A stretch of DNA of 64,000 nucleotides. Origin: Halorhabdus salina (GTDB lineage: Archaea > Halobacteriota > Halobacteria > Halobacteriales > Haloarculaceae). The notes under the pieces are model-generated. The model saw only the letters and a program-made list of their open reading frames with translations. It had not been told where the DNA came from and ran no database searches. The first letter of the stretch is position 1. The number at the start of each line of letters is the position of its first letter. This document shows positions 32,937 to 47,288 of the stretch, one piece after another. The position numbers were made by a program, and so were the translations under genes. Location of the stretch: the NCBI RefSeq assembly GCF_013839425.1, contig NZ_JACDNP010000001.1, positions 124,001-188,000 of the forward strand. The letters are read 5' to 3'.

Positions 32937-33023
32937 AAACGGGGCCGACACAGTCCCCCATCATAATAATTGTGGAAAATAATCCGGAAACCTGCCCGCC
33001 CAGACGGGATCAAGAGATATACC

Positions 33024-33932
33024 TCAGTCGAACAATCCAGTCGAAAGATACCGCTCGCCGCTGTCCCAAAAGACTGTCACGATCAATGGCGGCTCCGACG
33101 CGTCCGGGTCTGCGCGTTCCTCGGCGACATCCCTGGCGATGACGCCCATCGCGCCGCTGGATTGACCGACGAGAATGCCCTCCTCATGGGCCAGACGGCG
33201 ACACTCCGCCTCGGCGCCTTCGAGATCGATCGTCCGCACCTCGTCGAGTAGTTCACGATCCAGATTCTCGCTGACGAAACCCGGTCCCATCCCCTGGAAG
33301 TCATCAGAGCCGGACTCGCCGGTCGAGAGAACGGCGTTGGATTCGGGTTCGACGGCGATGACGTCCACGTCCGGGAACGCTTCCTTGAGTCGTCGCGCGT
33401 TCCCGCTGATCGTTCCACCCGTCCCGACGCCGGCGACGAACGCGTCGATCGTCCGGTCGCCGATCTGTTCGAGGATTTCGAGGGCTGTCGTCTCGTAATG
33501 GGCTTGGGGATTGGCCGGGTTCTCGAACTGGCGGGGCTGGAACATGCCCGCCTCGGCTTCGAGTTCGTCCGCCCGCTCGCGGGCAGTCGTCATATCCCCG
33601 GCGACGAGTTCGAGATCGGCACCATACGCCTTCATGAGACGACGACGCTCGACGGACATGTCTTCGGGCATGACGAGCGTCACGTCGTATCCCTTCGCGG
33701 CCCCCACCAGTGCGATCCCGATGCCCGTGTTCCCGCTCGTGGGCTCGACGATACTGTCGCCGGCTTCGAGTTCACCCGCCCGTTCGGCAGCCTCGATCAT
33801 ACCCAGCGCGGGACGATCCTTCGCCGAACCGCCCGGATTGAACGACTCGACCTTCGCAGCGATGGTCGCCCCTGGCGGCGAGGTAAGCTCGACCAGTGGC
33901 GAGCCGATCGTCTCCAGAATCGACGTGTCCAT
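33024..33932 (-). CDS. cysK: Cysteine synthase (O-acetylserine sulfhydrylase family)
   Basis: The 302-residue PLP enzyme has the lysine that forms the Schiff base at K38 in GGSAKDRPA, the substrate loop EPTSGNTGIG and the phosphate-binding GVGTGGTISG. It replaces the acetyl or phosphate group of activated serine with sulfide, giving cysteine. Cystathionine beta-synthase-type specificity cannot be excluded. An AGATTTACG box about 26 bases before the ATG fits a leaderless promoter, so it is not simply part of the regulator transcripts on either side. Confidence 0.93.
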   Translation of the reverse strand: MDTSILETIGSPLVELTSPPGATIAAKVESFNPGGSAKDRPALGMIEAAERAGELEAGDSIVEPTSGNTGIGIALVGAAKGYDVTLVMPEDMSVERRRLMKAYGADLELVAGDMTTARERADELEAEAGMFQPRQFENPANPQAHYETTALEILEQIGDRTIDAFVAGVGTGGTISGNARRLKEAFPDVDVIAVEPESNAVLSTGESGSDDFQGMGPGFVSENLDRELLDEVRTIDLEGAEAECRRLAHEEGILVGQSSGAMGVIARDVAEERADPDASEPPLIVTVFWDSGERYLSTGLFD

Positions 33933-34079
33933 TGCGAATGGCTAGCGCTGTGGGACGTAAATCTCTCCCGGACACCGGCAGGATCTACCGTCGACGACGC
34001 TCGGATCAACGTCCCAGCTCGGACACGTCTCGACGACCCAGGAGTGTCGCGGGGTGGCCAAACGACCGGCTGCCCAGCG

Positions 34080-34850
34080 TCACTCCAGTTCGGACTCCGG
34101 CACGCGCCAGGTGTAGCCGACGATCTCGAACGGCCGATCGTCGGGGTCGTCCAGCACCGTCGCATTCATGCGAAAGGTGCGTGTTTCGCCCGACTTCGAG
34201 ATGGCTTCGTACTCGAAGTTTGTAACGGTCCCCTCGGTAGCCAGTCGGTCGATGAGCGTCTCGCGTCGCTCCGGAGAGCTGTACAGTTCCTGGGCGAGAT
34301 CGTTATAGGCGTCGACTGCTGCCGACGGTGTCTCGTAACCGACGAGGGTGGCCATCGCTTCGTTAACCTCGTAGACCGTTCCGTCCGACGCGGTTCGAAA
34401 TATCCCGACCGGGGCGACGTCGAACAGCTTCTCGTACCGCTTTAGTTCCCGGTTGCGCCGTTGCTGTGAGACGGCGTTTTCGATGCGATTGACCAGCAAC
34501 GCGTATCGCTCCGTTCCGCCCCCTTTCTGTAGATAGTCGGTGACGCCGCGAGCGATCGCTTCGCTCGCGACTTCCTCGCTCCCCTTGCCGGTGAAGAGAA
34601 TGAACGGGAGCTCGGCATGTTCAGCCCGAATCGCGTCAAGTAATTCGAGGCCGTCCATGTGAGGCATGTCGTAGTCGCTGACGACACAGTCGACTGGATT
34701 GCTCGATAGTCGATCGAGGACCGCGGTGGGATCTGTCTCCGTGATGATTTCGAATCGCTCTGCGCTACGCTGGAGGACGGTTTCGCTCAACGCGAGAAAG
34801 TCCGGCTCGTCATCGACACAGAGTACAGTGACCACATCCTCCTCCGACAT
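34080..34850 (-). CDS. Receiver-PAS regulator
   Basis: From ATG 34850 the 256-residue protein has a receiver domain (D13-D14, phosphoacceptor D59 in SDYDMPHMDG) and one PAS domain (FDVAPVGIFRTASDGTV). It lacks an output domain. Both parts match the first and last domains of the regulator at 31281-32936, including the run FILFTGKGSEEVASEAIA, so the two arose by duplication, with GAF and one PAS gained or lost. CTTATG about 26 bases upstream supports this start over one nine codons earlier. Confidence 0.88.
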   Translation of the reverse strand: MSEEDVVTVLCVDDEPDFLALSETVLQRSAERFEIITETDPTAVLDRLSSNPVDCVVSDYDMPHMDGLELLDAIRAEHAELPFILFTGKGSEEVASEAIARGVTDYLQKGGGTERYALLVNRIENAVSQQRRNRELKRYEKLFDVAPVGIFRTASDGTVYEVNEAMATLVGYETPSAAVDAYNDLAQELYSSPERRETLIDRLATEGTVTNFEYEAISKSGETRTFRMNATVLDDPDDRPFEIVGYTWRVPESELE

Positions 34851-35282
34851 GTCAGCAGATAGGTTGGGTGAACCCATAAGTGTAGTGTGAGAGGCACAGT
34901 CGCCATTCGAGCGCGACTGCGTTCACGGTTTGCCCACGATCATCGGGTGAGCGAACCGAAGCCCGGCCCCGGCGAGCGATAAGGCTTTGTGGGGCGGGTT
35001 GCGTGACTCTGTACCATGAGCGGGGCCCGACGGGGAACCGACTGCACGTACTCCATCTGGACGAACAGGCATCGGACCCGGCTGCCGGACTGGTGATCCT
35101 GAGCGTCTGTGATGGCAACGTTCGCCGACGTGAACGTATCCCATTCGTCCGTCGATCAGTGACGTCGCGTTCCAGTCAGTACCCGACCAGAGCAAAGCGA
35201 GCGGTGAACCCCTGCACGGTCGAGACAGGCTACGTTCACCACTTTCGCGACCGTTAAACGGCTCGCCACCGAACTGTGAGCC
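34851..35282. other. 432-base intergenic region with no supported gene
   Basis: Several short frames cross the region on both strands, but none shows a domain, promoter or sustained codon bias. The left end holds the promoter of the receiver-PAS gene, and the right end holds TTAAAC (35254-35259), which fits the thioredoxin-fold gene. Nothing else is recognisable. Confidence 0.6.
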
Positions 35283-35657
35283 ATGCCACTCGAAACGCTA
35301 GAACCCAATCCGGTCTGGAACGCTGACGCTCACGAAGACATTGTCGAAACCCTGGCGAGGGTTGGGGACGTAACGTACCGCGTATGGGGCGGTGACTGGT
35401 GTGGCGACTGTCGATCACTGCTGCCGGACTTTGGTGCCGCGCTCGAAGCCGCAGGCGTCCCCGAAGAACGCATCGAACACCACCCTGTCGACCAGGACAA
35501 GGAGGGCGAGGGTGTCGAGGAATACGGGATCGAATACATTCCGACGGTCGTCGTCGAGCGCGACGGAGAAGAGCTCGCCCGCTTCGTCGAGGACGAGGGT
35601 CAACCGATCGCCAGCTATCTGGCGAGCCAACTCGAATCAGTCGAGTCGGCGGTCTGA
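35283..35657 (+). CDS. Thioredoxin-fold protein, WCGDC active site
   Basis: The 124-residue protein has the active-site motif WCGDC (C40, C43) and the cis-proline region YIPTVVV. The variant Gly-Asp pair between the cysteines differs from classical thioredoxin (Gly-Pro) and occurs in small archaeal thioredoxin-like oxidoreductases. It is cytoplasmic, without signal peptide. It faces the DUF255 gene, which also carries a thioredoxin domain; the two are convergent, 12 bases apart. Confidence 0.88.
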   Translation: MPLETLEPNPVWNADAHEDIVETLARVGDVTYRVWGGDWCGDCRSLLPDFGAALEAAGVPEERIEHHPVDQDKEGEGVEEYGIEYIPTVVVERDGEELARFVEDEGQPIASYLASQLESVESAV

Positions 35658-35669
35658 CCCGGAATCGCG

Positions 35670-37871
35670 CTATTCGTCACCGTCAAACCACGCAAGTGCC
35701 GACTCGACGTCGGAAAGCGGGCGTGAACAGGTGAAATCCTGGCAAGCGTAGATCGTCGGCCGGCCGTCCTGGGCCGCTCGCTCGGCAAATATCGGCGGAG
35801 CCGTCTCGTGACCGAACTGGTCGAGCCACGCCTTTAGCCCGTCGTCAATCGGCGGTCGCCGGGCCAAGATCCGATTCGGCAGATACGTTCCGCCGATACG
35901 CTCGCGCCACGATTCGGGGACAGTCTCGGCGGCCACCGTCAGCTCGCTTGCCCCACTGGTCGCGTGGTCGGCCGCCAACACCAGCGAGGCATGTTGGAGC
36001 GGATCGGCTGCGATCGCGTCGTGGTGGGTCGATAGCACCGACCGGGCGACCGACTCGAAGCGATCGTGCGGGGCGAACGCCGACAGCGAGAGTAACACGT
36101 CCACTGCGACGCCGGCACTCGACGGGGTCGAGCGGTCGGTCACTTCCTGGGGCCGTGCGAGCAGGTCAGTCCCACCGGCCTCAGTGAAGTACAGTGTTCC
36201 TGGGTCTTCGTCCCAAAAGCGAGACTCGATTTCACGGGCAAGGTCGAGTGCAAATCCGAGGTGGTCGGGGTCGCCAGTCGCCTGATAGCAGTCGAATGCC
36301 CCACGGGCGAGAAACGCGTAGTCTTCCAGATAGCCATCGATCTGGATGTCGCCATCCGCATAGCGGCGTTTCAGCAGTCCATCGTCGCCATCCCAGAGGT
36401 GTTCCCGAACGAATTCGAGTGCCTCGCTCGCTCGAGCTCCCCAGTCGCCATCAAGCGCAAGCGCACCCTCGGCGAGCGCCGAGATTGCCAGGCCGTTCCA
36501 GCCGGCCAGGACTTTCTCGTCTCTCGACGGACGCGTCCGTTCCGAGCGCGCTTCGAACAGTTGCTCGCGGGCCCGTTCGAGGCGCTGTGTGACTTCCTCA
36601 ATATCGAGTTCCGACTGGGTCGCCAGTTCCTCGTGGCCGGCACTGATCGTCAGCACTGTCTGTCCGTCTTCGAAGTTACCGTCCTCGGTGATCCCGAATC
36701 GTTCCAGCGCCAGGGAAGCATCCGTCTCGTCGTCGATCGCCGCCCGGACTTGCTTGGGTGTCCAGACGTAGAATCTCCCCTCTTCACCGTCACTTCGAGC
36801 GTCGAGGGTGCTGTAAAAGCCGCCGCCAGGATGAGAGAGCTCTCGATCGAGGAATTCGAAGGTCTCGCGAGCCACACGGGCGTAGCGCTCCTTCCCGGTC
36901 GCCCGGTAGCCCTCGATGAACGCCCGCGGGATCTCCGCGTTGTCGTAGAGCATCTTTTCGAAGTGTGGGACCGTCCAGGATCGATCGGTCGCATAGCGGT
37001 GGAACCCACCGCCGACGTGATCGTACAGCCCCCCCATCGCCATCGCGTCCAGCGTTTCTGTGAGGACAGCGCTGTATTCTCGGGGTCCAGTGTCCTCCTC
37101 GTCGCTGTCAGCGAGTTCACTGCCGTTGATTCCCTCCAGGCCACCGTTGTCTTTGGTGGGAGTGCCGTCCTCGATTCGGGCCTCAGCACGCCCCAAGAGT
37201 TGTAGGCGCGCCGGCTGTGGGAACTTCGGTCCACCTCGCCCGAAGCCGCCGTGTTCACGGTCGGCCTGCCTGAGGGTCGACGCTGCGGCGGCTTCGAGAA
37301 GCTCGCCGCCTGCGTCGTCGTCGTCCATCTCGGCCGGGGAGTCCGGCGTTCCTTCTAACTGTCCGGCGATCGCATCGGCCCACTGATCGGCTCGCTGTTG
37401 GACATTCTCCCGATCATTTACCCACGTCTCGTTGAGGTCAGCAAGTAACTGCTCGAAGCCCGGCCGTCCGCCTTGCGGATCGGGCGGAAAGTACGTCCCC
37501 ACATAAAAGGGCCGCCTGTCCGGCGTGAGCCAAACTGACAGTGGCCAGCCACCTTGCTGGCCGAGGACCTGTGCGAGCGTCTGGTAAATTCGGTCGACAT
37601 CTGGCCGTTCCTCGCGGTCGACCTTGATCGGAACGAAGTGGTCGTTGAGTGTCTCCGCGACCGCAGGGTCGGAAAAACTTTCTTCCTCCATGACATGACA
37701 CCAGTGGCACGACGAGTAACCGATCGAGAGGAATATCGGACGGTCCTCGCGCTCGGCCGCCTCGAGAGCCTGGTCGTCCCAAGGCTGCCAGTTGACCGGG
37801 TTGTCGGCGTGTTGGGTCAGGTACGGACTCGCCTCGTCGTCGAGGCGGTTTCGATCTGTAGGTGTGGACAT
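35670..37871 (-). CDS. DUF255 thioredoxin-domain protein (YyaL/Spermatogenesis-associated 20 type)
   Basis: The 733-residue protein opens with the DUF255 signature [17 protein letters not shown] and the motif [14 protein letters not shown], holding the CHWC redox pair. A long alpha/alpha-barrel region similar to N-acylglucosamine epimerases and glycosidases ([13 protein letters not shown]) follows. Members are widespread from bacteria to humans; the reaction is unknown. The length is normal for the family. It is divergent from purD over a 100-base spacer. Confidence 0.92.
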
Positions 37872-37971
37872 GGCCGTCTGTCAGAGTCCGACGGGTAAAC
37901 CCGTGGCGTCGCCGGCGAGGTTCGCACCGCCAAGAGCAACCTTTACACTCCCCTAGTGTGGCCCTTCTCCC

Positions 37972-39264
37972 ATGACAGAAACGGTACTGCTGATCGGGGG
38001 CGGCGGCCGGGAGCACGCGATTGCCCGCGCACTCGCTGACTCGGACTGTGCGCTGTATGCCGCCGCTGGCAACCGCAACCCCGGGATCGCCAGCCTGGCG
38101 GATGGCTTCGAGACGCTGGAGACGACCAATCCAGAAGCCGTCACGACCTACGCCAACAAGGTCGAAGCCACGTTGGCCATCGTCGGTCCGGAAGCACCCC
38201 TCGAGGCAGGTGTCGCCGACGCGCTGGGCGACGCTGGCGTCTATGCCTTCGGTCCACAGCAGGCAGAGGCCCGCATCGAGACAGACAAGGGCTTCCAGCG
38301 CCGGTTCATGGACCGCCACGACATCGCTGGCTGTCCAGACTTCGAGGAGTTCACCGACAGCGAGGCCGCCTGTACGTATATCGATGAGTACGACGGCGAC
38401 CTAGTCGTCAAACCGGCGGGACTTACCGGCGGGAAGGGCGTCCGCGTCATCGGCGATCAGGTGACACCCGCGGAAGCCAAGGCATACATTCGCGACTCCG
38501 ACCACGATCGACTTGTCCTCGAAGAACGCCTCGTGGGAGAGGAGTTTACCGTCCAAGCGCTGGTGGCCAACGGCGACATTCGGGTCACGCCCGCCGTCCA
38601 GGATCACAAACGTGCCTACGAGGGCGACGAAGGACCGAACACTGGGGGAATGGGCTCTTACAGCGACGCGAGCCTCGAACTGCCGTTCATGGACCGCGAC
38701 GAGTATCTCGAAGCCGTCGATATTCTTCAGGAGACCGTCGACGCCCTCGAGGGCTACAAGGGCGTCCTCTACGGGCAGTTCATGCTCACTGCCGACGGGC
38801 CAAAAGTCGTCGAATTTAACGCCCGCTTCGGTGATCCCGAGGCGATGAACACCCTCCCAGTCATGGAGACGGACCTGCTTGATGTGCTCGTGGCAGCCCG
38901 CGAGAACGAGTCACTGCCCCAACTCCAGTTTCAGCCCCAGGCGACCGTCTGCAAATACGCGGTACCCGACGGCTATCCGACTGATCCAGAAGCCGGCGCG
39001 AAGGTCCAGCTCTCGCCCAAGAGTGCGAGTGACGCACTGCTGTACTACGCCAGCGTCGAGGAGCGAGAGGACGGCATCTACACGACGACCTCTCGCTCGT
39101 TCGCCGTCGTCGGCGTCGCCGATTCGATCACTGACGCCGAAGCGATCGCCACCGAGGCATTGGAGAGTGCGGGAACTGAGGGACTGCGCGTTCGCTGGGA
39201 CATCGGCACGCCCGATCTGGTGCAGTCGCGACTCGGTCACATGGACGAGCTGCGCGGTGAGTGA
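37972..39264 (+). CDS. purD: Phosphoribosylamine-glycine ligase
   Basis: The 430-residue ATP-grasp enzyme has the N-terminal LLIGGGGREHAIARAL loop, the ATP-grasp segment KPAGLTGGKGVRV and the metal-site block EFNARFGDPEA. It joins glycine to phosphoribosylamine in purine synthesis. The length is normal. The gene is single on its transcript; the downstream region leads into the toxin-antitoxin island. Confidence 0.97.
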   Translation: MTETVLLIGGGGREHAIARALADSDCALYAAAGNRNPGIASLADGFETLETTNPEAVTTYANKVEATLAIVGPEAPLEAGVADALGDAGVYAFGPQQAEARIETDKGFQRRFMDRHDIAGCPDFEEFTDSEAACTYIDEYDGDLVVKPAGLTGGKGVRVIGDQVTPAEAKAYIRDSDHDRLVLEERLVGEEFTVQALVANGDIRVTPAVQDHKRAYEGDEGPNTGGMGSYSDASLELPFMDRDEYLEAVDILQETVDALEGYKGVLYGQFMLTADGPKVVEFNARFGDPEAMNTLPVMETDLLDVLVAARENESLPQLQFQPQATVCKYAVPDGYPTDPEAGAKVQLSPKSASDALLYYASVEEREDGIYTTTSRSFAVVGVADSITDAEAIATEALESAGTEGLRVRWDIGTPDLVQSRLGHMDELRGE

Positions 39265-39340
39265 TCGCGCCCTGGCATTGTCGCTTCGTTCCCCGAGGTG
39301 TGCAGATCACGGATCGTCTCACGCTGGCTGTCCGGAGAAG

Positions 39341-39370
39341 TTTTATGACAATTACAGACATACACTGACA
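39341..39370 (+). promoter_or_regulatory. Promoter and candidate operator of the toxin-antitoxin pair
   Basis: TTTTAT (39341-39346) is the likely TATA box. Starting inside it, the pentamers TGACA (39346), AGACA (39356) and TGACA (39366) recur exactly every ten bases, one turn of the DNA helix. They lie between TATA and the expected start site, where a bound antitoxin would block initiation. The repeat is seen directly; its use as an operator is inference. Confidence 0.6.
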
Positions 39371-39380
39371 TAGCAGATAG

Positions 39381-39740
39381 ATGCCGATCCAGCTACATCC
39401 GGACGATGAGACAGCAGGTTCTCCACCAGTCAAACCGGGGACGAATGCCCACGAACTACTGGTTGTCCTCTTGGAACACCAGGATATGGGATTCAGTCCG
39501 AAGGAACTTGCGGAGTTGACGGACGTAGCCCATTCGAGCGTCCACAAGACGCTCTCCCGAATGGAAGACCGGGGACTCGTCCGGAAAGTTGACTCCTATT
39601 GGGCAGTTGCTGACGACATCGCGGCTTCCGAAGTTGCATCCGTCGTGAGCCTGCAGAGTATTCAGGACGCCTACGGGGATGACGCGTACGGTGACGACGA
39701 GTGGGTGGAGTCGGCCAGCGATCTCGGCGAGAACGCGTAA
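39381..39740 (+). CDS. Winged-helix antitoxin or regulator (MarR-like)
   Basis: The 119-residue protein has a MarR/TrmB-like winged helix at residues about 22-75: the recognition helix lies in AELTDVAHSSVHKTLSRMED and the wing in GLVRKVDSYWAV. An acidic C-terminal tail contains a duplicated YGDDA block. It is immediately followed by a PemK/MazF-family gene, with one base position between stop and start. Antitoxins often combine DNA binding with toxin binding through a flexible tail, so this is the probable antitoxin and repressor. Confidence 0.8.
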   Translation: MPIQLHPDDETAGSPPVKPGTNAHELLVVLLEHQDMGFSPKELAELTDVAHSSVHKTLSRMEDRGLVRKVDSYWAVADDIAASEVASVVSLQSIQDAYGDDAYGDDEWVESASDLGENA

Positions 39741-40070
39741 ATGGCCTACGCACAGGGGAGCGTGGTCATCGCGCCAGCGACATTCAAAGGCGGCCGACGG
39801 CCATATCTCGTCGTCTCGAATGCAGATCGACCGTTCTTTGGCGACCGGTATACCGTCGCCGTCGTCACGTCGACCGAACGAGAGTCTGCGGTCCCGATCG
39901 CCGAGCAGTCACTGACAGCAGGCGAACTCAAAACCTACCCGAGTTACGTCAGTCCGTGGTCGATGCACGTCTTTCCCGATCAAGAGATCACGAAACGTGT
40001 TGCTCAGGTCGATATGGAGACGATGCAAGCGGTTGCAGAGACGATCCGGACGTTCACTCGCGTGCTGTAA
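39741..40070 (+). CDS. PemK/MazF-family toxin (putative endoribonuclease)
   Basis: The 109-residue protein has the PemK/MazF barrel pattern: GSVVIAPATFKGGRRPYLVV, then VAVVTSTERES and a C-terminal helix (MQAVAETIRTFTRVL). The conserved Arg-Pro and Thr-Ser positions of the catalytic face are present. MazF toxins cleave single-stranded mRNA or tRNA at short sequences and arrest growth. The strict adjacency to the winged-helix gene forms a type II-like module with a non-MazE antitoxin. Whether the nuclease is active cannot be judged from sequence. Confidence 0.82.
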   Translation: MAYAQGSVVIAPATFKGGRRPYLVVSNADRPFFGDRYTVAVVTSTERESAVPIAEQSLTAGELKTYPSYVSPWSMHVFPDQEITKRVAQVDMETMQAVAETIRTFTRVL

Positions 40071-40695
40071 AACGGTGAGTGGCCGTAGCCGTTCGCTGTT
40101 GGTCTACCGAGCCCTCGCTCACTTCGCGCGACTCGGCACCGGCGCTTCTGTATCCGCGCGAACAATGCGAGTGCGGTTCACTCGGCGCGACCCTTGAGAG
40201 CGCCGAGCGTGTTTTTCTCCACGTTTTTGCGCGCCGAGAGGGGCGCCTTGGTGTCCCTCTGGCGGTGCGAACGGCGACTTCGTCGCCGTGAGCAGAGAGT
40301 GGTACCCGCAGCGAACGGAGTGAGTGAGGACACCCGAACGAGTAAAAAGAGGTAGTGCGCCGAAAGACTCGCTTCGCTCGTCTTTCGAGCCCTGCCTCGC
40401 TCCGCTCGACAGGACGCCGGAAGAGCAAGCTCTTCCGTGCCCTCGCTCACTCGCTTGCACTCGTTCGCGAGGACGCCTGAAGACTCTCGTCGGTCGTCTT
40501 CCGAACCCTGCCTCGCTTCGCTCGGCAAGATGCCGAGAGAGCAAGCACTCTCGAACCCTCGCTCGCTTCGCTCGCGAGGACGCCCGGCCGGGAGTTCACC
40601 GAACGGAGTGAGGTGAACGTTGACAGACGAAGTCTGTCAGGAGTGAGCGAAGCCGTCGCCTTCGCGAACTACGGGCGGCGCACGACCGAAGGGAG
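40071..40695. repeat. Stem-loop island B: second run of short perfect hairpins
   Basis: This 625-base gap has no credible gene. It carries perfect inverted repeats at 40271-40289, 40361-40387, 40419-40436, 40479-40501, 40534-40553, 40594-40618 and 40622-40638, with loops often built from CTTCG or AAGC. Frequent CGCTTCGCTCG-like words give the region a patchwork look. The frames that cross it (for example 40119-40544, minus) are palindrome artefacts. It lies between the toxin gene and the tRNA-Gly 3'-end copy. Confidence 0.85.
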
Positions 40696-40717
40696 TGCGC
40701 CGGCCGGGAATTGAACC
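40696..40717 (-). repeat. Direct copy of the tRNA-Gly 3' end (attachment-site-like)
   Basis: These 22 bases are identical to 40824-40845, which are the discriminator, acceptor 3' strand and T-arm part of tRNA-Gly. Identity stops abruptly on both sides. Duplication of a tRNA 3' end is the classic footprint of tyrosine-integrase insertion, giving attL and attR. No integrase gene is present in the window. Confidence 0.75.
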
Positions 40718-40793
40718 AGAGCCAGAGGGTCCTGCTCGTCGCTTCGCTCCTGCGCGGGCTGCCACTGGCAGGGCTCAATTCCCTCATATTACA

Positions 40794-40822
40794 TTTGCCG
40801 CTCACGGGTTGTTCGCGGCAAA
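40794..40822. repeat. 8-bp stem-loop directly beyond the tRNA-Gly 3' end
   Basis: TTTGCCGC (40794-40801) pairs with GCGGCAAA (40815-40822) across thirteen bases. It lies one base past the tRNA 3' end in the direction of transcription. It may help termination or 3' processing. Confidence 0.6.
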
Positions 40823-40823
40823 A

Positions 40824-40894
40824 TGCGCCGGCCGGGAATTGAACCCGGGTCGAGAGCTTGGAAGGCTCTTGTCATACCACTAGACCACCGGCGC
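40824..40894 (-). tRNA. tRNA-Gly (anticodon UCC)
   Basis: The 71-base minus-strand sequence folds as a standard tRNA. Acceptor GCGCCGG pairs with CCGGCGC, with discriminator A. The anticodon stem AGAGC/GCTCT surrounds loop CTTCCAA with anticodon TCC. The T-arm is CCGGG-TTCAATT-CCCGG. CCA is not encoded. No clear TATA box precedes it within fifty bases; instead the upstream side holds partial copies of its own 5' end. It appears to be a used integration site. Confidence 0.96.
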
Positions 40895-41020
40895 TCGTTC
40901 ACTGCGTTCACTCGCGCCGAGCATCGACGGACTGCGTCCGTCTCAACACCGGCGCTCGTTCACTGCGTTCACTCGCGCGCCGAGGATCGCAAATCCGTCG
41001 GATTTGCTCACCACCGGCGC
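40885..41020. repeat. Repeated tRNA-Gly 5'-end fragments upstream of the tRNA
   Basis: A 32-base block covering the tRNA 5' end and its flank (40886-40917) recurs exactly at 40947-40978. A ten-base core, CCACCGGCGC, is seen in the tRNA (40885-40894) and again at 41011-41020. Between them is a perfect hairpin GCAAATCCG/CGGATTTGC at 40989-41007. The rest of the 216-base gap up to 41110 has no gene. Confidence 0.8.
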
Positions 41021-41110
41021 GTGACTGCAACGGAACTCGATCACAGCTACCTGTGTCGAGCCCGCGATTGCATCCGAACGTAACTCAGCCCTCGTTAAGG
41101 GTGTTTCCTT

Positions 41111-41755
41111 TCAGAATGGTTCAGGCCGAACCGTCCCGTAGCAGTTCCCACTCGAAATTTCCAACTCGACCAGCGAAAGATCACTCGCCGCTACGTCTGA
41201 TCTGAACTCTGCAGGCGCATAGATGTGATAAAAGCGCGGCACGGTCTCACTGCCAGGCAGCGTCCACTCGACAGTCGTATCGAAACCAGTCTCCGCGTCC
41301 GCCGCCGCGTCGAATCTGTCGTGAGCCGTGCTCCAGGCACTGACGAGGGCTCGCCCGTCGGAATCGAGGACGCGCGCAAGTTCGTCCAGACTGGCGATCC
41401 GCGCCTCTCGTGACGGGAGATGATGCAGCGTTGCGACGTAGACGGCAAGATCGACACGCCCGCTTGCGATCGGTAGCCGAGCGGCGTCACCGAGCAGCAA
41501 CGAGGCATCGGGAACTCGCTTCGTCGCGGCGTCGAGTAGCGATCGACTCACGTCCACCCCGAGGACTCGATCAGCTCGCTGCTGGAGTGTTTCGACGTGG
41601 CGGCCGTTGCCACAGCCGATGTCGAGGGCCAGATTCGTCTGGGCAGCGTCGTCGACGAACGCCTCGACTTCGGGCCAGGCGTACTCGCGGGTCTTCGAGA
41701 AGTGCTCGCCGATGCGATCGTATGTTTGACGCACGTCCGCGCGGGAGCGATCCAT
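41111..41755 (-). CDS. TRM9-like tRNA wobble-uridine methyltransferase
   Basis: The 214-residue protein begins VRQTYDRIGEHFSKTREYAW, typical of the Trm9/ABH8 family. SAM motif LALDIGCGNGRHVETL, the loop LPIASGRVDLAVYVATLHHL and the late motif RFYHIYAPAEF follow. Eukaryotic Trm9 finishes carboxymethyl modifications at the wobble uridine; archaeal relatives probably act on tRNA, though the product is not known. It starts six bases after the tyrS stop, so it shares that transcript. Confidence 0.85.
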   Translation of the reverse strand: MDRSRADVRQTYDRIGEHFSKTREYAWPEVEAFVDDAAQTNLALDIGCGNGRHVETLQQRADRVLGVDVSRSLLDAATKRVPDASLLLGDAARLPIASGRVDLAVYVATLHHLPSREARIASLDELARVLDSDGRALVSAWSTAHDRFDAAADAETGFDTTVEWTLPGSETVPRFYHIYAPAEFRSDVAASDLSLVELEISSGNCYGTVRPEPF

Positions 41756-41761
41756 CGCCGA

Positions 41762-42799
41762 TCAGTCGTACTTCTCGGGGTAGGCTTTGGCCAGCAGTTT
41801 GGGCTGAGCCATCAGGCGTTCCCGGATCGGGTCGACGATGTCGCCGATGTACTCCCCGGCAGCGTTCTTCAGATCCTGGGGATGGAGTTCCTCGCTGACG
41901 AAGTCGGCTTCCAGGTCCTCGTAGGTCTCGTAGGTGAGGTTCCCACCGTATTCCTCGGGCCGCTCGACGACGAAGGCCTCACCGCGTTCGTCGAGGATCG
42001 GGAAGACGAGATAGCGGACGTACTCGAGCACGCCGTTGCCCTCCACCTCGCCCATCGGGCAGTAGGCGCCACCGATCTTCTCGGCGACTGTTTCGGGATC
42101 GTCCGTGAGTTCGACCTTCGAGGATTCCTCCGAGGCACTCATCTTCCCACCCGTCAGCCCTGAGAGCAGCGGCGCGAAGACACACGTCGGGGCCTTGCCG
42201 CCGTGTTCGGGCAAGATCTCCCGGGAGAGCATATAGATGCCCCGCTGGTCGATCCCGCCGTAGGCCACGTCGGCGTCCAGCGCATCAACGTCCAACGTTT
42301 GCATCAGGGGATAAACCAGCCCGCCGAGATTGGGCGAGTCAGATTCCCGGACGACTTCGCTCGCGGCCCGCTGGGCGCGGGCGATCGTCGTCTCGGCGGT
42401 CATCCGCAGCAGTTCGAGACTGTACTCCCGATCGAGTTCGAACTCGCGCCCGCGCACGAAGGAGATCTGCTCGGGGTCGGCCCCGGCCGCCTCGACCATC
42501 GCCCGGATCGTTTCCTCGTAGTACTCAGACCGCGCTTCCAGGAGGTCAAACGGGCTCTTTGCATCGTCGAGGTGGGCGTGGAGGTCGGCGATCAGTACCG
42601 TCACGTCCATCCCGGCGTGGAGGAAGTCTGCCAGTTTGCGGATCGTCGTGAAGTGTCCGATGTGCATCTCGCCCGTCGGCGCGTAGCCGATGTACACCGA
42701 CGGGTCCTCGCGCTCCTCGAACAACTCCCTGAGTTCCTCCTCGGTGACGACCTCCGCAGTGTTGCGGGTCGCCAGCTCGACGCGCTCGTCCGTGTCCAT
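41762..42799 (-). CDS. tyrS: Tyrosyl-tRNA synthetase
   Basis: The 345-residue class I synthetase has the HIGH-type motif GEMHIGHF, tyrosine-pocket segment YPLMQTLDVDALDADVAYGG and the KMSKS variant GGKMSAS. It lacks the C-terminal RNA-binding domain of the bacterial enzyme, as is normal for archaea. It charges tRNA-Tyr. It is probably co-transcribed with the TRM9-like gene. Confidence 0.97.
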   Translation of the reverse strand: MDTDERVELATRNTAEVVTEEELRELFEEREDPSVYIGYAPTGEMHIGHFTTIRKLADFLHAGMDVTVLIADLHAHLDDAKSPFDLLEARSEYYEETIRAMVEAAGADPEQISFVRGREFELDREYSLELLRMTAETTIARAQRAASEVVRESDSPNLGGLVYPLMQTLDVDALDADVAYGGIDQRGIYMLSREILPEHGGKAPTCVFAPLLSGLTGGKMSASEESSKVELTDDPETVAEKIGGAYCPMGEVEGNGVLEYVRYLVFPILDERGEAFVVERPEEYGGNLTYETYEDLEADFVSEELHPQDLKNAAGEYIGDIVDPIRERLMAQPKLLAKAYPEKYD

Positions 42800-42868
42800 A
42801 CGCGTTCGTCCGGAGTCCGTCCCTAAAACGATTCGTTTCCCGGTTCGGACATCGCCACTGACCGACGA

Positions 42869-43912
42869 TCACTCCTCGCTTTCGGAGACCCGCCGCCGGT
42901 GGACGATCCCCTGGTTGTTCGCTGTGTTGGCGGCGAAATTGCGGAACGCATCGCCCACGTCAAGGTCGGACAGGACGGCAGGCCGCCCTTCGTCGCCGCG
43001 CTGGCGGATCTCGGGATCAAGTGGGATCGAACCCAGGAACGGCATGTCGACGTCGGCGGCGAACTCCTCGCCGCCACCCTCGCCGAAGATGGCGTGGTCG
43101 CTGCCACAGTCCGGGCACTTGAAGGAGCTCATGTTCTCGACGATTCCCAGCACGGGTGTCTCGTGGCGGCCGAACATCTCCAGGCCCTTGCGAGCGTCGT
43201 CGATGGCGACGCCCTGCGGGGTCGTGACGATCACCGCACCCGTGACAGGGACGGTCTGCAGCATCGTGAGTTGCGTGTCGCCGGTCCCCGGCGGGAGGTC
43301 GACGACCAGATAGTCCAGGTCGCCCCATTCGACGTCCTCAAACAGCTGCGTCAGCGTCTGGTGGACCATCGGGCCCCGCCAGATCACGGGGTCGTCCTCG
43401 CCAAGCAAGAAGTCCATGCTCATGAGTTTCATCCCGTGTTTCTCTGGCGGGATGATGCGCTCGTCTTCGGTGGCTTCGGGGCGCTCGTGGGCGTCGAGCA
43501 TCCGCGGGACGTTCGGTCCGTAGATGTCAGCGTCGAACAGCCCGACTCGGGCGCCCCGATCGGCGAGTCCCGCTGCGAGATTGACCGAGACCGTGCTCTT
43601 GCCGACGCCGCCTTTCCCGGAGGCGACGGCGATCACGTTCTGCACGCCGGGCAAGACATCGCCCTCGGCTTCGCGTTCAACCGTCGCTGACAGATCCACA
43701 GCAAGATCGGGTGCTGCATCGCCGATCACCTCGCGAACGCGGTCAGCGATCGCCGTCTCGGTCGGCGAGAAGGGCGCCCCGAGGGCGAGATCGATACGAG
43801 CAGCCCCGTTATCCAGTTCGACGTCGTTGACCAGCCCCAGCGAGACAATATCGTCACCCAGCTCCGGGTCCTCGACCGATTTCAGCAACTCCCGCAGTTC
43901 TGCTTCGTCCAT
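42869..43912 (-). CDS. Mrp/NBP35 ATPase, iron-sulfur cluster carrier
   Basis: From ATG 43912 the 347-residue protein has an N-terminal DUF59/MIP18 domain (LLKSVEDPELGDDIVSLGLV). The deviant Walker A ASGKGGVGKSTV, the switch VVDLPPGTGD and the cluster-binding pair CPDC follow. Mrp proteins form dimers that carry a 4Fe-4S cluster between CxxC pairs and transfer it to target enzymes. The upstream extension of 26 residues is rejected because family members begin near MDEAEL. It is 69 bases upstream of tyrS, in the same direction. Confidence 0.94.
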   Translation of the reverse strand: MDEAELRELLKSVEDPELGDDIVSLGLVNDVELDNGAARIDLALGAPFSPTETAIADRVREVIGDAAPDLAVDLSATVEREAEGDVLPGVQNVIAVASGKGGVGKSTVSVNLAAGLADRGARVGLFDADIYGPNVPRMLDAHERPEATEDERIIPPEKHGMKLMSMDFLLGEDDPVIWRGPMVHQTLTQLFEDVEWGDLDYLVVDLPPGTGDTQLTMLQTVPVTGAVIVTTPQGVAIDDARKGLEMFGRHETPVLGIVENMSSFKCPDCGSDHAIFGEGGGEEFAADVDMPFLGSIPLDPEIRQRGDEGRPAVLSDLDVGDAFRNFAANTANNQGIVHRRRVSESEE

Positions 43913-43986
43913 GCATCGCGATAGGCCCCGAGCGAGCGAAAAGGCTTGTGACCCCGCCTCGGTCGGCCGTGCTCGGTCACTGACGA

Positions 43987-44709
43987 TCAACGATCCACCG
44001 GTTCGCCAGGACCGATCGTGAACGCACAGTCGGCCGCCAGCCTGAGAACAGCCCGATCGCCGAGTTCGACATCGCTGAGTCGTTGGCCGATCGAATGGTC
44101 CCCAAACGAGACCGACGCCCGGGAACTCGCCGGCCAGGCCCCTGCCCGTCCCCGCAATGCCGTGGGCTCCCGGAGGAGTTCGCCGTCCGATTCGGTGAAG
44201 TTGTAGCCCGAGAACCGGATCGGCACGGTCGGCGGTCGCTGGATCGACGCGGTGAGCAATTCCGTCCCGTCAGCGGTGACTCTCGCCGTCCGCGTCCGGC
44301 CATCGTCAGTCACGTCAATGTTGACGACGAGCTTCGGATAGCCCCAGATGTCGACACCGAAGGCGCGGGCGGGTTCGGTCGTCACCGGGAGCGTGTAGAC
44401 GTAGCCACTGACGGGGCGACGTAGCAGCGAGACAAACGGGACGGTTCGCCGCCCAGCTTCGACGGCGGGAATCAGGACACCCACCTCGTCGTACGACGAG
44501 ATGGTCTCGTCGCCGACGCGGTCGTACCGGACGATGAGTACCGTCAGCGCAGCCCGATCGGATCGCATGCCGACGGGTTGGAGCCCGACCGGGAGCAGGC
44601 CCAGTAGGTCGTCTCGATCCGCCGGGAAAACAGCCCCCGCGATCGTCGCCGAGAGTGAGACTGGCAGTTCGAACGTGTGGCCGGTCGAGACCGTGATAGA
44701 CTCGCTCAT
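43987..44709 (-). CDS. Acetoacetate decarboxylase-family protein
   Basis: From ATG 44709 the 240-residue protein matches the ADC fold: YDEVGVLIPAVEAGRRTVPF and the late motif FGVDIWGYPKLVV. Classical ADC uses a Lys Schiff base to decarboxylate acetoacetate; distant relatives act on other beta-keto or cyclic compounds, so the substrate remains open. The start overlaps the end of the SDR gene by four bases, indicating one transcript and a joint pathway. Confidence 0.82.
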   Translation of the reverse strand: MSESITVSTGHTFELPVSLSATIAGAVFPADRDDLLGLLPVGLQPVGMRSDRAALTVLIVRYDRVGDETISSYDEVGVLIPAVEAGRRTVPFVSLLRRPVSGYVYTLPVTTEPARAFGVDIWGYPKLVVNIDVTDDGRTRTARVTADGTELLTASIQRPPTVPIRFSGYNFTESDGELLREPTALRGRAGAWPASSRASVSFGDHSIGQRLSDVELGDRAVLRLAADCAFTIGPGEPVDR

Positions 44710-45548
44710 TCGGCAATCATCCTCCGGAATCGACACAGGGCCCCAAGCGCGCCCATGGTCACACGCTGTCCGAGATCCTGGATCGGTTCTGGTAGCCATC
44801 GGGTCGCCAGAATCAGCTTCGCCGGCAGGCCAACGGGATAGCGAGCGGCCGGCGTTTCGGCCGTCGAAGCGTCGTAGATCGTCGCTGCGACCCGCTCGGG
44901 CGAAACAGCGAGTGGCCCGCCGCCAAGCAGCCCAGTACCATCGAGGGCGTCGTAGATGTTCGCGTATCTGTTCGAGCGCTCGAATCCGGCAAGGTGACGG
45001 TCGGATGCGGCAGCGAGGTCGGTGTCGACCCAGGCGGGTTCGATTAGCGTCACGTGCACATTCTGGGTCGCGACTTCCACGCGAAGCGTGTCGAGCATCC
45101 CCTCGACGGCGTGTTTCGACGCTGCATACGCACCCATTCCGGGGGTCGTCACGCGCCCATGCGTGCTCGAGACTGCAATAGCTGTCCCGTCCCGCTGGCG
45201 CAACAGCGGCAGCGCGGTCGTGATCGTTCGGAGGGTGCCGTGGACGTTGACCGCGAACTGTCGGTCGATTCGCTCGGGTGGGAGGTCTTCGAGTGGGCCT
45301 GGCTGGCAGTAGCCGGCGTTGGCGACCACCGCATTGAGTCCGCCAGCCTCCTCGCGAATCCGCTCGAAAATATGATCCAGATCGTTCTGGTCAGTCACGT
45401 CTACCGTCGCCGTGTGACAGCCCTCCAGCGTCGCGAGACCGTCGACATCGACGTCAGTGGCGTAGACCTGCCAGCCGCGAGTCCCAAACTGCTGGGCCGT
45501 CGCCCGGCCGATCCCGGAGGCAGCGCCTGTCACGAGAACGGTATCCAT
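44706..45548 (-). CDS. Short-chain dehydrogenase/reductase
   Basis: From ATG 45548 the 280-residue protein has the cofactor motif TGAASGIG, the NAG motif (VVANAGYC), the catalytic Ser in VSSTHG and Tyr-Lys in YAASK. The Asp at the end of the second strand (ATDVDVDG) favours NAD. Together with the downstream ADC-like gene it could oxidise a hydroxyacid or alcohol to a keto compound that is then decarboxylated; this is inference from the overlap. Confidence 0.88.
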   Translation of the reverse strand: MDTVLVTGAASGIGRATAQQFGTRGWQVYATDVDVDGLATLEGCHTATVDVTDQNDLDHIFERIREEAGGLNAVVANAGYCQPGPLEDLPPERIDRQFAVNVHGTLRTITTALPLLRQRDGTAIAVSSTHGRVTTPGMGAYAASKHAVEGMLDTLRVEVATQNVHVTLIEPAWVDTDLAAASDRHLAGFERSNRYANIYDALDGTGLLGGGPLAVSPERVAATIYDASTAETPAARYPVGLPAKLILATRWLPEPIQDLGQRVTMGALGALCRFRRMIAE

Positions 45549-45678
45549 CGACGGAACGATTGTCTCCACGGAGCAAAGTCGTTGCGCCCGTGGCCCCGGT
45601 CGTCACCTCATCGAGGTGTGCTGTCACGCAACCGTACGTGATATACCCTCACACCGATAGGGCGACCCTTTCGTTGCG

Positions 45679-45686
45679 TTTATATA
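45679..45686 (+). promoter_or_regulatory. Strong TATA element of the tRNA-Ser / ribosomal protein operon
   Basis: TTTATATA is the best TATA box in the region. It would start transcription near 45710, placing tRNA-Ser about 55 bases into the transcript, followed by rps13. Thus the tRNA is probably processed from a long polycistronic RNA. Confidence 0.7.
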
Positions 45687-45766
45687 CCGACGACGGATAC
45701 CGAATAGTACGCATCGTGCAGGGGCACCGGCCCCGAGTCCGCGAGGGCGCAAGTACGTGACAGCGA

Positions 45767-45849
45767 GTCGTGGTAGCCAAGCGGCCCAAGGCGCATGGTT
45801 GCTAACCATGTGGCGTAAAGCCTCCGGGGTTCGAATCCCCGCCACGACG
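45767..45849 (+). tRNA. tRNA-Ser (anticodon GCU)
   Basis: The 83-base class II tRNA has acceptor GTCGTGG pairing with CCACGAC, discriminator G and anticodon loop TTGCTAA (anticodon GCT, reading AGC and AGU). A long variable arm (near TGGCGTAAAGCCTC) and T-arm CGGGG-TTCGAAT-CCCCG complete it. It lies 17 bases before rps13. Confidence 0.96.
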
Positions 45850-45866
45850 TTTCACGATCCCAACAT

Positions 45867-46391
45867 ATGAGCGCAGAAGACCCAGACGCGGACGTGCCGG
45901 AGGACGACGAAGACTTCCGGTACTTCGTCCGCATCGGACAGGCAGACCTCGACGGGACGAAGTCCGTCGAACGAGCCCTGACAGACTTGAACGGCATCGG
46001 CCAGCGCGCGGCCCGCATTATCGCCAACGACGTCGACATCGACCGCCGGGAGACCTTCGGTCGGCTTGAAGACGATCAGATCGAAGCTATCGTCGATTGC
46101 GTCGAAGGGTTTGCCGACGAGGTGCCCGACTGGCTGGCAAACCACCGTAACGACTTCTTCGACGGGGAGACGACCCACGAGATCGGGAACGATCTCAACC
46201 TCATCCGGCGGCAGGATATCAACCGGATGAAGATGATCAATGCCTACAAAGGCGTTCGCCACAAGCGAGGGCAGAAGGTCCGTGGCCAGCGGACGAAGTC
46301 CACTGGCCGGACCGAAGGTACGATCGGCGTCAACGTCGAGGCGATCAAGGAAGAACGCGCAGAAGAAGAAGCCGCGGAGGATGAAGAATAA
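45867..46391 (+). CDS. rps13: 30S ribosomal protein S13
   Basis: The 174-residue protein has the S13 helix-two-turns-helix ([16 protein letters not shown]) and the basic tail [20 protein letters not shown], then an acidic haloarchaeal extension. It contacts 16S rRNA and the P-site tRNA at the subunit head. It opens the classical S13-S4-S11-RpoD block and its stop overlaps the rps4 start by one base. Confidence 0.98.
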
Positions 46392-46900
46392 TGGCACTCG
46401 GCTCAAACACCAAGTTCTACGAGACGCCCAACCACCCCTTCCAAGGCGAGCGTATCGCCGACGAAATGGGGTTGACCGGGCAGTACGGCCTCAAGAACAA
46501 AGAAGAGCTCTGGCGTGCCCAATCGGAACTGCGAGGGTATCGCCGCGAAGCCCGTCGGTTGCTCGGTCGGGACGCCGACGAGCGCGAAGCCGAGGAGTTC
46601 CTCGGTCGCCTCAAGCGACTCGGCATTCTCGGTGACGAGGACCGCCTCGACGACGTTCTATCGCTGGAAGTGACGGATGTCCTCGAACGGCGACTCCAGA
46701 CGGTCATCTACCGGAAAGGGTTGGCCAATACGGTCGATCAGGCCCGACAGTTCATCACGCACGGCCACATTCTGGTCGAGGGACGGCGCGTCTCGATCCC
46801 CTCGAAGATGGTGGCCGTCGCCGAGGAATCGGGCATCGAGTTCGACGAGGCGAGTCCGCTCGCCGACGATCTCCACCCAGAACGCGCGGAGGAACGATAA
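46391..46900 (+). CDS. rps4: 30S ribosomal protein S4
   Basis: The 169-residue protein has the S4 RNA-binding domain ([20 protein letters not shown], and [20 protein letters not shown]). It binds the 5' domain of 16S rRNA early in assembly. Start and stop are tightly coupled with rps13 (TAATG) and rps11 (one-base gap). Confidence 0.98.
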
Positions 46901-46901
46901 T

Positions 46902-47288
46902 ATGGCAGAAGACGACGGCAAGTGGGGCATTGCCCACGTGCACGCATCGTTCAACAACACGATCATTACGATCACCGACCAGACCGGCGCCGAAACGCTG
47001 GCGAAGAGTTCGGGCGGGACGGTCGTCAAGCAGAACCGTGACGAGGCCTCGCCGTACGCGGCGATGCAGATGGCCGAAACGGTCGCCGAACAAGTACAGC
47101 AACGAGGTATCGACGGTGTGCACGTTCGTGTGCGCGGCCCCGGCGGGAATCAACAGCAGAACCCCGGGCCGGGCGCCCAGGCGACCATCCGGGCGCTGGC
47201 CCGTGCAGGTCTGGAGATCGGCCGGATCGAAGACGTGACCCCGATCCCGCACGACGGCACCCGCAGTCCAAAGTCGAGTGGATTCTAA
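46902..47288 (+). CDS. rps11: 30S ribosomal protein S11
   Basis: From ATG 46902 the 128-residue protein has [15 protein letters not shown] near its start, [20 protein letters not shown] in the RNA-binding loop and the C-terminal [10 protein letters not shown]. It sits on the 30S platform beside the mRNA exit. A longer frame from inside rps4 is rejected. Confidence 0.98.

What the first reader, a model, noticed from the sequence alone, without database searches (positions are those of the whole stretch)
39338..40070. Winged-helix/MazF-type toxin-antitoxin module with helically phased operator
Seen: a MarR-like winged-helix gene is followed immediately by a PemK/MazF-family gene. The pentamers TGACA, AGACA and TGACA recur every ten bases from the TATA box to the predicted start site. 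Known: MazF toxins normally pair with AbrB-type MazE or RHH antitoxins. Inference: here a winged-helix protein serves as antitoxin and repressor, with the acidic duplicated C-terminal tail binding the toxin. The module sits in an apparent integration island, where such systems often stabilise mobile DNA.
Basis: partly seen in the sequence, partly recalled or inferred. Interest (0 to 1): 0.62.

Follow-up and report, generated by a model that had tools for sequence, protein, structure and literature searches.

The report
Winged-helix MazF toxin-antitoxin with phased operator
This is a two-gene toxin-antitoxin module, carried by about three quarters of the salt-loving archaea tested, in which a predicted RNA-cutting MazF toxin is always preceded by a winged-helix DNA-binding protein that probably neutralises it through a short tail and probably silences both genes by lining up on repeats spaced one DNA turn apart.

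Summary
A 119-aa winged-helix gene (39381-39740) abuts a PemK/MazF gene (39741-40070; Pfam 37.6 bits, cut-off 23.1). TGACA/AGACA/TGACA lie at 39346, 39356 and 39366.

The main inference survives comparative tests. In 12 whole genomes 61 of 61 toxins of this family have the winged-helix gene directly upstream; in a wider set 126 of 128 do. The family occurs in 220 of 292 haloarchaeal genomes. The tail Trp (W108) is invariant in 117/117 antitoxins; the toxin Arg20 is invariant and position 43 is Thr or Ser. AlphaFold2 leaves the tail disordered in the antitoxin alone (pLDDT 42-48) but orders it (81-84) when the stop is read through into the toxin.

The phased repeat is a real phylogenetic footprint: at least 3 copies of [GT]AC[AG] at 9-10 bp in 85/118 loci, 0/29 canonical haloarchaeal mazEF promoters and 0/277 other ORF upstreams. 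Lys56 of the recognition helix goes with GAC repeats (20/20), other residues with TAC (86/86); only two independent switches.

Corrections: the tail duplication is clade-specific, and the "island" is a slot of about 0.85 kb beside tRNA-Gly. Toxicity, neutralisation and DNA binding are untested. I found no description of the pair in the library searched. Verdict: new variant of MazEF-type systems.

The parts
39341..39348 (+). TATA-like box (TTTTATGA), overlapping operator copy 1
   Evidence: Sequence; TTTAT conserved in close orthologues
39346..39350 (+). operator copy 1, TGACA
39356..39360 (+). operator copy 2, AGACA (GAC invariant in 17/17 orthologues)
39366..39370 (+). operator copy 3, TGACA (invariant in 17/17 orthologues), near the inferred transcription start
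   Evidence: start site inferred from the TATA distance
39375..39379 (+). degenerate operator copy 4 (AGATA; GAC present at this place in 94% of close orthologues)
39381..39740 (+). winged-helix antitoxin/repressor gene, 119 aa
   Evidence: Pfam MarR_2 above cut-off; obligate partner
39531..39569 (+). recognition helix, residues 51-63, with Lys56 (39546-39548), the residue that co-varies with the operator core
   Evidence: AF2 helix 51-63; co-variation
39678..39737 (+). C-terminal tail, residues 100-119, with invariant Trp108 (39702-39704); predicted toxin-binding segment
   Evidence: W in 117/117; disordered alone, ordered next to toxin
39741..40070 (+). MazF/PemK-family toxin gene, 109 aa, with Arg20 (39798-39800) and Thr43 (39867-39869) at the MazF active-site positions
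   Evidence: Pfam PemK_toxin above cut-off; conservation; alignment to B. subtilis EndoA; Foldseek
40696..40717 (.). 22-nt exact duplicate of the tRNA-Gly 3' end (att-like scar); beside, not flanking, the pair
40824..40894 (-). tRNA-Gly(TCC), right-hand neighbour of the variable slot

Best explanation
A type II toxin-antitoxin operon of the MazEF kind whose antitoxin has a winged-helix DNA-binding domain instead of AbrB or RHH. Proposed mechanism: (1) the toxin is a MazF-fold mRNA endonuclease; (2) the antitoxin's disordered C-terminal tail folds onto the toxin, anchored by Trp108, and blocks it; (3) the winged helices, alone or bridged by toxin dimers, sit side by side on one face of DNA on 3-4 direct repeats spaced 9-10 bp that run from the TATA box to the start codon, shutting out TBP/TFB and RNA polymerase, so the pair represses itself; (4) the recognition helix reads the repeat core, Lys56 going with G in GAC and Pro/Val/Thr with T in TAC; (5) loss of the labile antitoxin frees the toxin and the promoter. 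Shown by sequence: the gene order, obligate pairing, conserved active-site and tail residues, conserved operator and residue-operator co-variation. Predicted: the MazF fold and tail ordering. Inferred: all activities.
For: Pairing: 126/128 loci, 61/61 toxins in 12 whole genomes, 12/12 more divergent haloarchaeal loci, on plasmids and chromosomes. Toxin: PemK_toxin above cut-off; Foldseek best hits are all MazF; R20, P31, P72 and W73 invariant or nearly so, position 43 is T in 94% and S in the rest; R20 and T43 align with the Arg and Thr columns of B. subtilis EndoA. Tail: W108 in 117/117, an acid within 3 residues before it in 112/117; pLDDT 42-48 alone against 81-84 with a new helix 106-111 next to the toxin. 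All 29 canonical haloarchaeal MazF partners, of two other N-terminal types, also carry an acidic tail with Trp. Operator. Specificity: K56 with GAC 20/20, non-K with TAC 86/86, with two co-incident changes on the tree.
Against: No experiment shows toxicity, neutralisation or DNA binding. The tail prediction is from a covalent read-through, not a true complex, uses a different alignment from the control, and no coordinates were available to check contacts. The K56/operator link rests on only two independent switches (sign test p = 0.5). In four divergent loci (L174-L177) the tail lacks Trp. 21 of 82 antitoxin-family hits lack a toxin found by the profile; some are followed by divergent or broken PemK-like ORFs, others look solitary.
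Confidence: 0.85

Rival explanations
1. The winged-helix protein is only the operon's repressor; neutralisation comes from elsewhere (another antitoxin or an RNA), or the toxin is regulated only by transcription.
For: Solitary antitoxin-family genes exist (21 of 82), so the DNA-binding part may have a life of its own. The operator evidence alone would fit a pure repressor.
Against: The tail beyond the winged helix carries an invariant Trp (117/117), is predicted to order only next to the toxin, and resembles the Trp-bearing acidic tails of two unrelated MazF partners in haloarchaea (29/29). The pairing is essentially without exception.
Confidence: 0.08
2. The MazF-fold protein is not a toxin but a domesticated ribonuclease or a co-regulator, and the pair is a stress regulator.
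For: Sequence similarity to characterised MazF is remote (best PDB profile E 0.003), and 2-9 copies per genome could suit regulation.
Against: The active-site Arg is invariant and position 43 is only Thr or Ser. Distribution is patchy (220/292 genomes) and partly on plasmids. The pair is absent at this site in same-genus genomes, and relatives include copies with premature stops: addiction-module behaviour.
Confidence: 0.07
3. The 10-bp repeats are a general haloarchaeal promoter feature or a site for another regulator, not the operator of this antitoxin.
For: They overlap the TATA box and start region, where general factors bind.
Against: 0/277 upstreams of other ORFs and 0/29 canonical mazEF promoters show them. 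The core base co-varies with a residue in this antitoxin's recognition helix.
Confidence: 0.06

Closest known systems
MazEF / PemIK type II toxin-antitoxin systems (AbrB-type MazE), including the canonical haloarchaeal mazEF loci
   Same: Antitoxin gene first, toxin directly after; MazF/PemK fold with the same active-site Arg and Thr positions; acidic, Trp-bearing antitoxin tail (29/29 canonical haloarchaeal partners).
   Different: DNA-binding domain is a winged helix, not AbrB; operator is a 9-10-bp phased direct repeat that canonical haloarchaeal mazEF promoters lack (0/29); the toxins form a separate, weakly similar subfamily.
MazF partners listed by Makarova et al. 2009 (PMC2701414): AbrB, RHH, XF1863, CcdA-like, PHD
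   Same: Alternative antitoxin folds for one toxin superfamily.
   Different: No winged-helix partner of MazF was found in the passages read.
HTH/wHTH antitoxins of other toxins (AbiEi, MqsA, Panacea-HTH proteins; PMC7319586, PMC10440598)
   Same: An HTH or winged-helix antitoxin protein that represses its own operon.
   Different: Toxins are unrelated to MazF (nucleotidyltransferase, MqsR and others); AbiEi operators are inverted repeats (PMC7319586 abstract).
Regulators that bind tandem direct repeats head to tail (PhoB on pho boxes; omega repressor of omega-epsilon-zeta) - from general knowledge, not tested here
   Same: Direct repeats near one helical turn, overlapping the promoter, which suggests side-by-side binding.
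   Different: PhoB is a response regulator with about 11-bp spacing; omega is an RHH protein on 7-bp repeats; neither is a MazF antitoxin.

Membership tests
Type II TA system, MazEF/PemIK kind | Two small adjacent genes, antitoxin first, co-oriented, with little or no gap | tested here: met
   Gap 0 in the window; within about -20..+4 nt in nearly all 126 pairs
Type II TA system, MazEF/PemIK kind | Toxin of the PemK/MazF family and fold | tested here: met
   Pfam PemK_toxin 37.6 bits over cut-off 23.1; Foldseek top hits all MazF
Type II TA system, MazEF/PemIK kind | Active-site Arg and Thr | tested here: met
   R20 invariant, position 43 T (94%) or S; aligned to B. subtilis EndoA
Type II TA system, MazEF/PemIK kind | Antitoxin C-terminal tail binds the toxin | tested here: inconclusive
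   Invariant W108; tail ordered only next to toxin in AF2; no direct binding evidence
Type II TA system, MazEF/PemIK kind | Toxin arrests growth and antitoxin rescues | not testable with these tools
   Needs expression experiments
Canonical MazE (AbrB-type antitoxin) | AbrB/SpoVT DNA-binding domain | tested here: not met
   Only winged-helix families match the antitoxin
MarR family regulator | Winged-helix domain matching the family model | tested here: met
   MarR_2 36.5 bits over cut-off 27
MarR family regulator | N- and C-terminal dimerisation helices around the winged helix | tested here: not met
   AF2: residues 1-21 not helical and low in confidence; one helix 78-98 then a disordered tail
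MarR family regulator | Inverted-repeat operator | tested here: not met
   Conserved sites are direct repeats at 9-10 bp
tRNA-targeted integration island | att repeats flanking the cargo, with an integrase | tested here: not met
   22-nt tRNA duplication lies 40696-40717, outside the pair; no integrase recognised on reading the ORFs of 33000-47000 (no profile search was made)

The most novel reading that the evidence does not exclude
The antitoxin protomers bind as a head-to-tail helical array on one face of the promoter, one winged helix per 9-10 bp, with MazF dimers bridging neighbours, so that promoter output reads the toxin:antitoxin ratio through array length. This would be a mode of TA autoregulation distinct from palindrome-bound dimers, with a one-residue specificity switch (Lys56 versus Pro/Val) that keeps paralogous modules in one genome insulated from each other.
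Probability: 0.35. Interest if true: 0.72.

Novelty: new variant of a known kind. Interest (0 to 1): 0.6.

Why it matters
About three quarters of the haloarchaeal genomes sampled carry this module, up to nine copies each in the genomes checked, yet the antitoxin is annotated only as a MarR family regulator or HTH protein. It adds a DNA-binding fold to the partners of MazF and suggests that the toxin-binding tail stays while the DNA-binding domain is swapped. It also offers a testable protein-DNA code: a conserved phased operator whose core base follows one residue of the recognition helix, in archaea whose paralogous modules must avoid cross-talk.

Tried and rejected
Chance origin of the repeats: rejected by shuffles, 277 other ORF upstreams, and 29 canonical mazEF promoters. 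General MazF partner: canonical haloarchaeal MazF have AbrB-type or another small antitoxin, so the winged-helix pairing is subfamily-specific. Phage origin: no match in phages or viral contigs; plasmids yes. Defence-system membership: PADLOC gave only weak HTH matches and nothing for the toxin. Genome-wide sites for the window's antitoxin: seven pattern matches; one (L190) lies before an ABC-transporter ATPase and overlaps its start, and was not pursued. The tree-based test of K56 against operator core has only two independent contrasts, so it is not significant by itself. Literature: no description of a winged-helix/MazF pair in the held library; subscription papers are not covered.

Full report
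What is there. ORF 39381-39740 (119 aa) is a winged-helix protein (Pfam MarR_2, 36.5 bits, cut-off 27) and ORF 39741-40070 (109 aa) a PemK/MazF protein (37.6 bits, cut-off 23.1). The stop of the first touches the ATG of the second, in frame. NCBI's toxin models do not hit the toxin. In related plasmid records the toxin is named PemK/MazF or hypothetical and the partner MarR family regulator or HTH protein.

Pairing. Twelve close homologues (64-77% identity) all have the winged-helix gene 1-6 nt upstream. The same genome holds two more pairs, at 21-26% toxin identity, with the same order. A profile of the toxins found the family in 220 of 292 haloarchaeal genomes at E <= 1e-5. Of 128 toxin hits in fetched loci, 126 have an antitoxin-profile match directly upstream on the same strand. 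In 12 whole genomes searched with both profiles, 61 of 61 toxins are paired (one 22-residue fragment left out), and 61 of 82 antitoxin-family genes have such a toxin. Of the 21 others, several precede divergent or broken PemK-like ORFs that the profile missed (L204, L206, L211, L214 by reading), and others look solitary. Twelve more divergent haloarchaeal loci are all paired. Outside the class one locus (L162) is paired, one (L161) has a partner with a similar tail but no winged helix recognised by the profile, and distant MazF genes (L163-L168) have other partners.

Antitoxin tail. In 117 non-redundant antitoxins the winged helix is followed by a variable helix and a tail with an invariant Trp (W108), preceded by an acid within three residues in 112. 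AlphaFold2 on the antitoxin alone gives a confident winged helix and a disordered tail (pLDDT 42-48). On the natural read-through of the stop into the toxin, with 29 equally read-through pairs plus single genes as alignment, the tail reaches 81-84 and forms helix 106-111 and a short strand. Four divergent loci (L174-L177) lack the Trp. As a cross-check, 29 of 29 canonical haloarchaeal MazF partners, of AbrB type and of a second small type, also carry a Trp in an acidic C-terminus. The tail thus looks like the constant part and the DNA-binding domain the exchangeable part; whether by swap or convergence is open.

Toxin. Foldseek of the fused model returns MazF structures from the first hit on (4hke, 1ne8, 4mdx; target TM 0.67-0.83 among the listed hits). 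Arg20 is invariant and position 43 is Thr (94%) or Ser; they align with the Arg and Thr columns of B. subtilis EndoA.

Operator. The three pentamers lie at 39346, 39356 and 39366. In 17 orthologues of the clade the consensus is TTTATGACg-N5-aGACa-N5-TGACA-N5-nGACa, with GAC invariant in copies 2 and 3; copy 4 is degenerate in the window. Best-match scores of upstream regions rise at spacing 10, and less at 9, and not at 7, 8 or 11-13. With [GT]AC[AG] as unit, 85 of 118 loci have at least three copies (spacing 10 in 126 steps, 9 in 86, 11 in 1), against 0.25% of shuffles, 0 of 277 other ORF upstreams, 1.15% of random window 70-mers and 0 of 29 canonical mazEF promoters. The median array runs from -34 to -7 from the start codon, over TATA box and start site. 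Direct repeats one turn apart imply side-by-side binding in one orientation rather than on a palindrome; this is inference.

Code. Loci with GAC repeats have Lys at residue 56 of the recognition helix (20/20); loci with TAC repeats have Pro, Val, Thr or Ser (86/86; two mixed arrays left out). On a tree built without the recognition helix, K56 and GAC each need two changes, at the same places, the second in L079/L083. The match is exact but gives only two independent contrasts, so it is suggestive. The window's paralogues L002 and L003 use TAC operators, so the three modules of this genome would be insulated from each other if the code holds.

Surroundings. The pair sits between purD (37972-39264) and tRNA-Gly (40824-40894). 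No homologous DNA follows purD within 1.5 kb in four same-genus genomes. In a fifth (G140) purD is followed by about 0.58 kb of unrelated sequence, then the same repeat-rich stretch, tRNA-Gly and methyltransferase gene. So the TA pair fills a small variable slot. A 22-nt exact copy of the tRNA-Gly 3' end lies at 40696-40717, a likely integration scar, but it does not flank the pair. No phage or viral-contig relatives were found; 25 haloarchaeal plasmid records have the toxin.

Known or new. Makarova et al. 2009 list AbrB, RHH, XF1863, CcdA-like and PHD partners for MazF-type toxins; no winged-helix partner appears in the passages read (PMC2701414). The NetFlax paper (PMC10440598) describes modular antitoxins with exchangeable neutralising elements, which fits the reading here, but the passages found do not describe this pair. 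No paper in the held library describes it. It works like a MazEF system and shares the toxin family. It fails the AbrB test for canonical MazE and the inverted-repeat and dimerisation-helix tests for MarR. I file it as a new variant of a known kind, with function inferred.

Noticed in passing
40696-40717 and 40824-40845: Exact 22-nt duplication of the tRNA-Gly 3' end, 128 bp apart, in a repeat-rich non-coding stretch (40100-41080) partly shared with a same-genus genome; looks like an old integration scar.
   Followed up: partly
L190:1501-1525: A TGACG/AGACA/AGACA triple with 10-bp phasing overlaps the start of an ABC-transporter ATPase gene elsewhere in the same genome, preceded by a TATA-like stretch; a possible second target of the antitoxin or chance.
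   Followed up: partly
L016-L045: Canonical haloarchaeal MazF have two kinds of partner (AbrB-type, and a second small type with a conserved TDDRGR-YLGTEYANKRVTVAVVEVE stretch); all 29 resolved end in an acidic tail with Trp.
   Followed up: partly
L056, L075, L084: Two winged-helix/MazF modules of different subclades lie within about 0.4 kb of each other in opposite orientation, convergent (G160) or divergent (G075).
   Followed up: no
L174-L177: Divergent branch whose antitoxins lack the tail Trp (ending near QYGEERLEDLQTD) with correspondingly divergent toxins; may use another anchor residue.
   Followed up: no
L161: In a genome of the same phylum outside the class, the toxin's upstream partner has a similar tail (YGRNPDWGENLEDLGEV) but no winged helix recognised by the profile; frameshift or a different N-terminal domain.
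   Followed up: no
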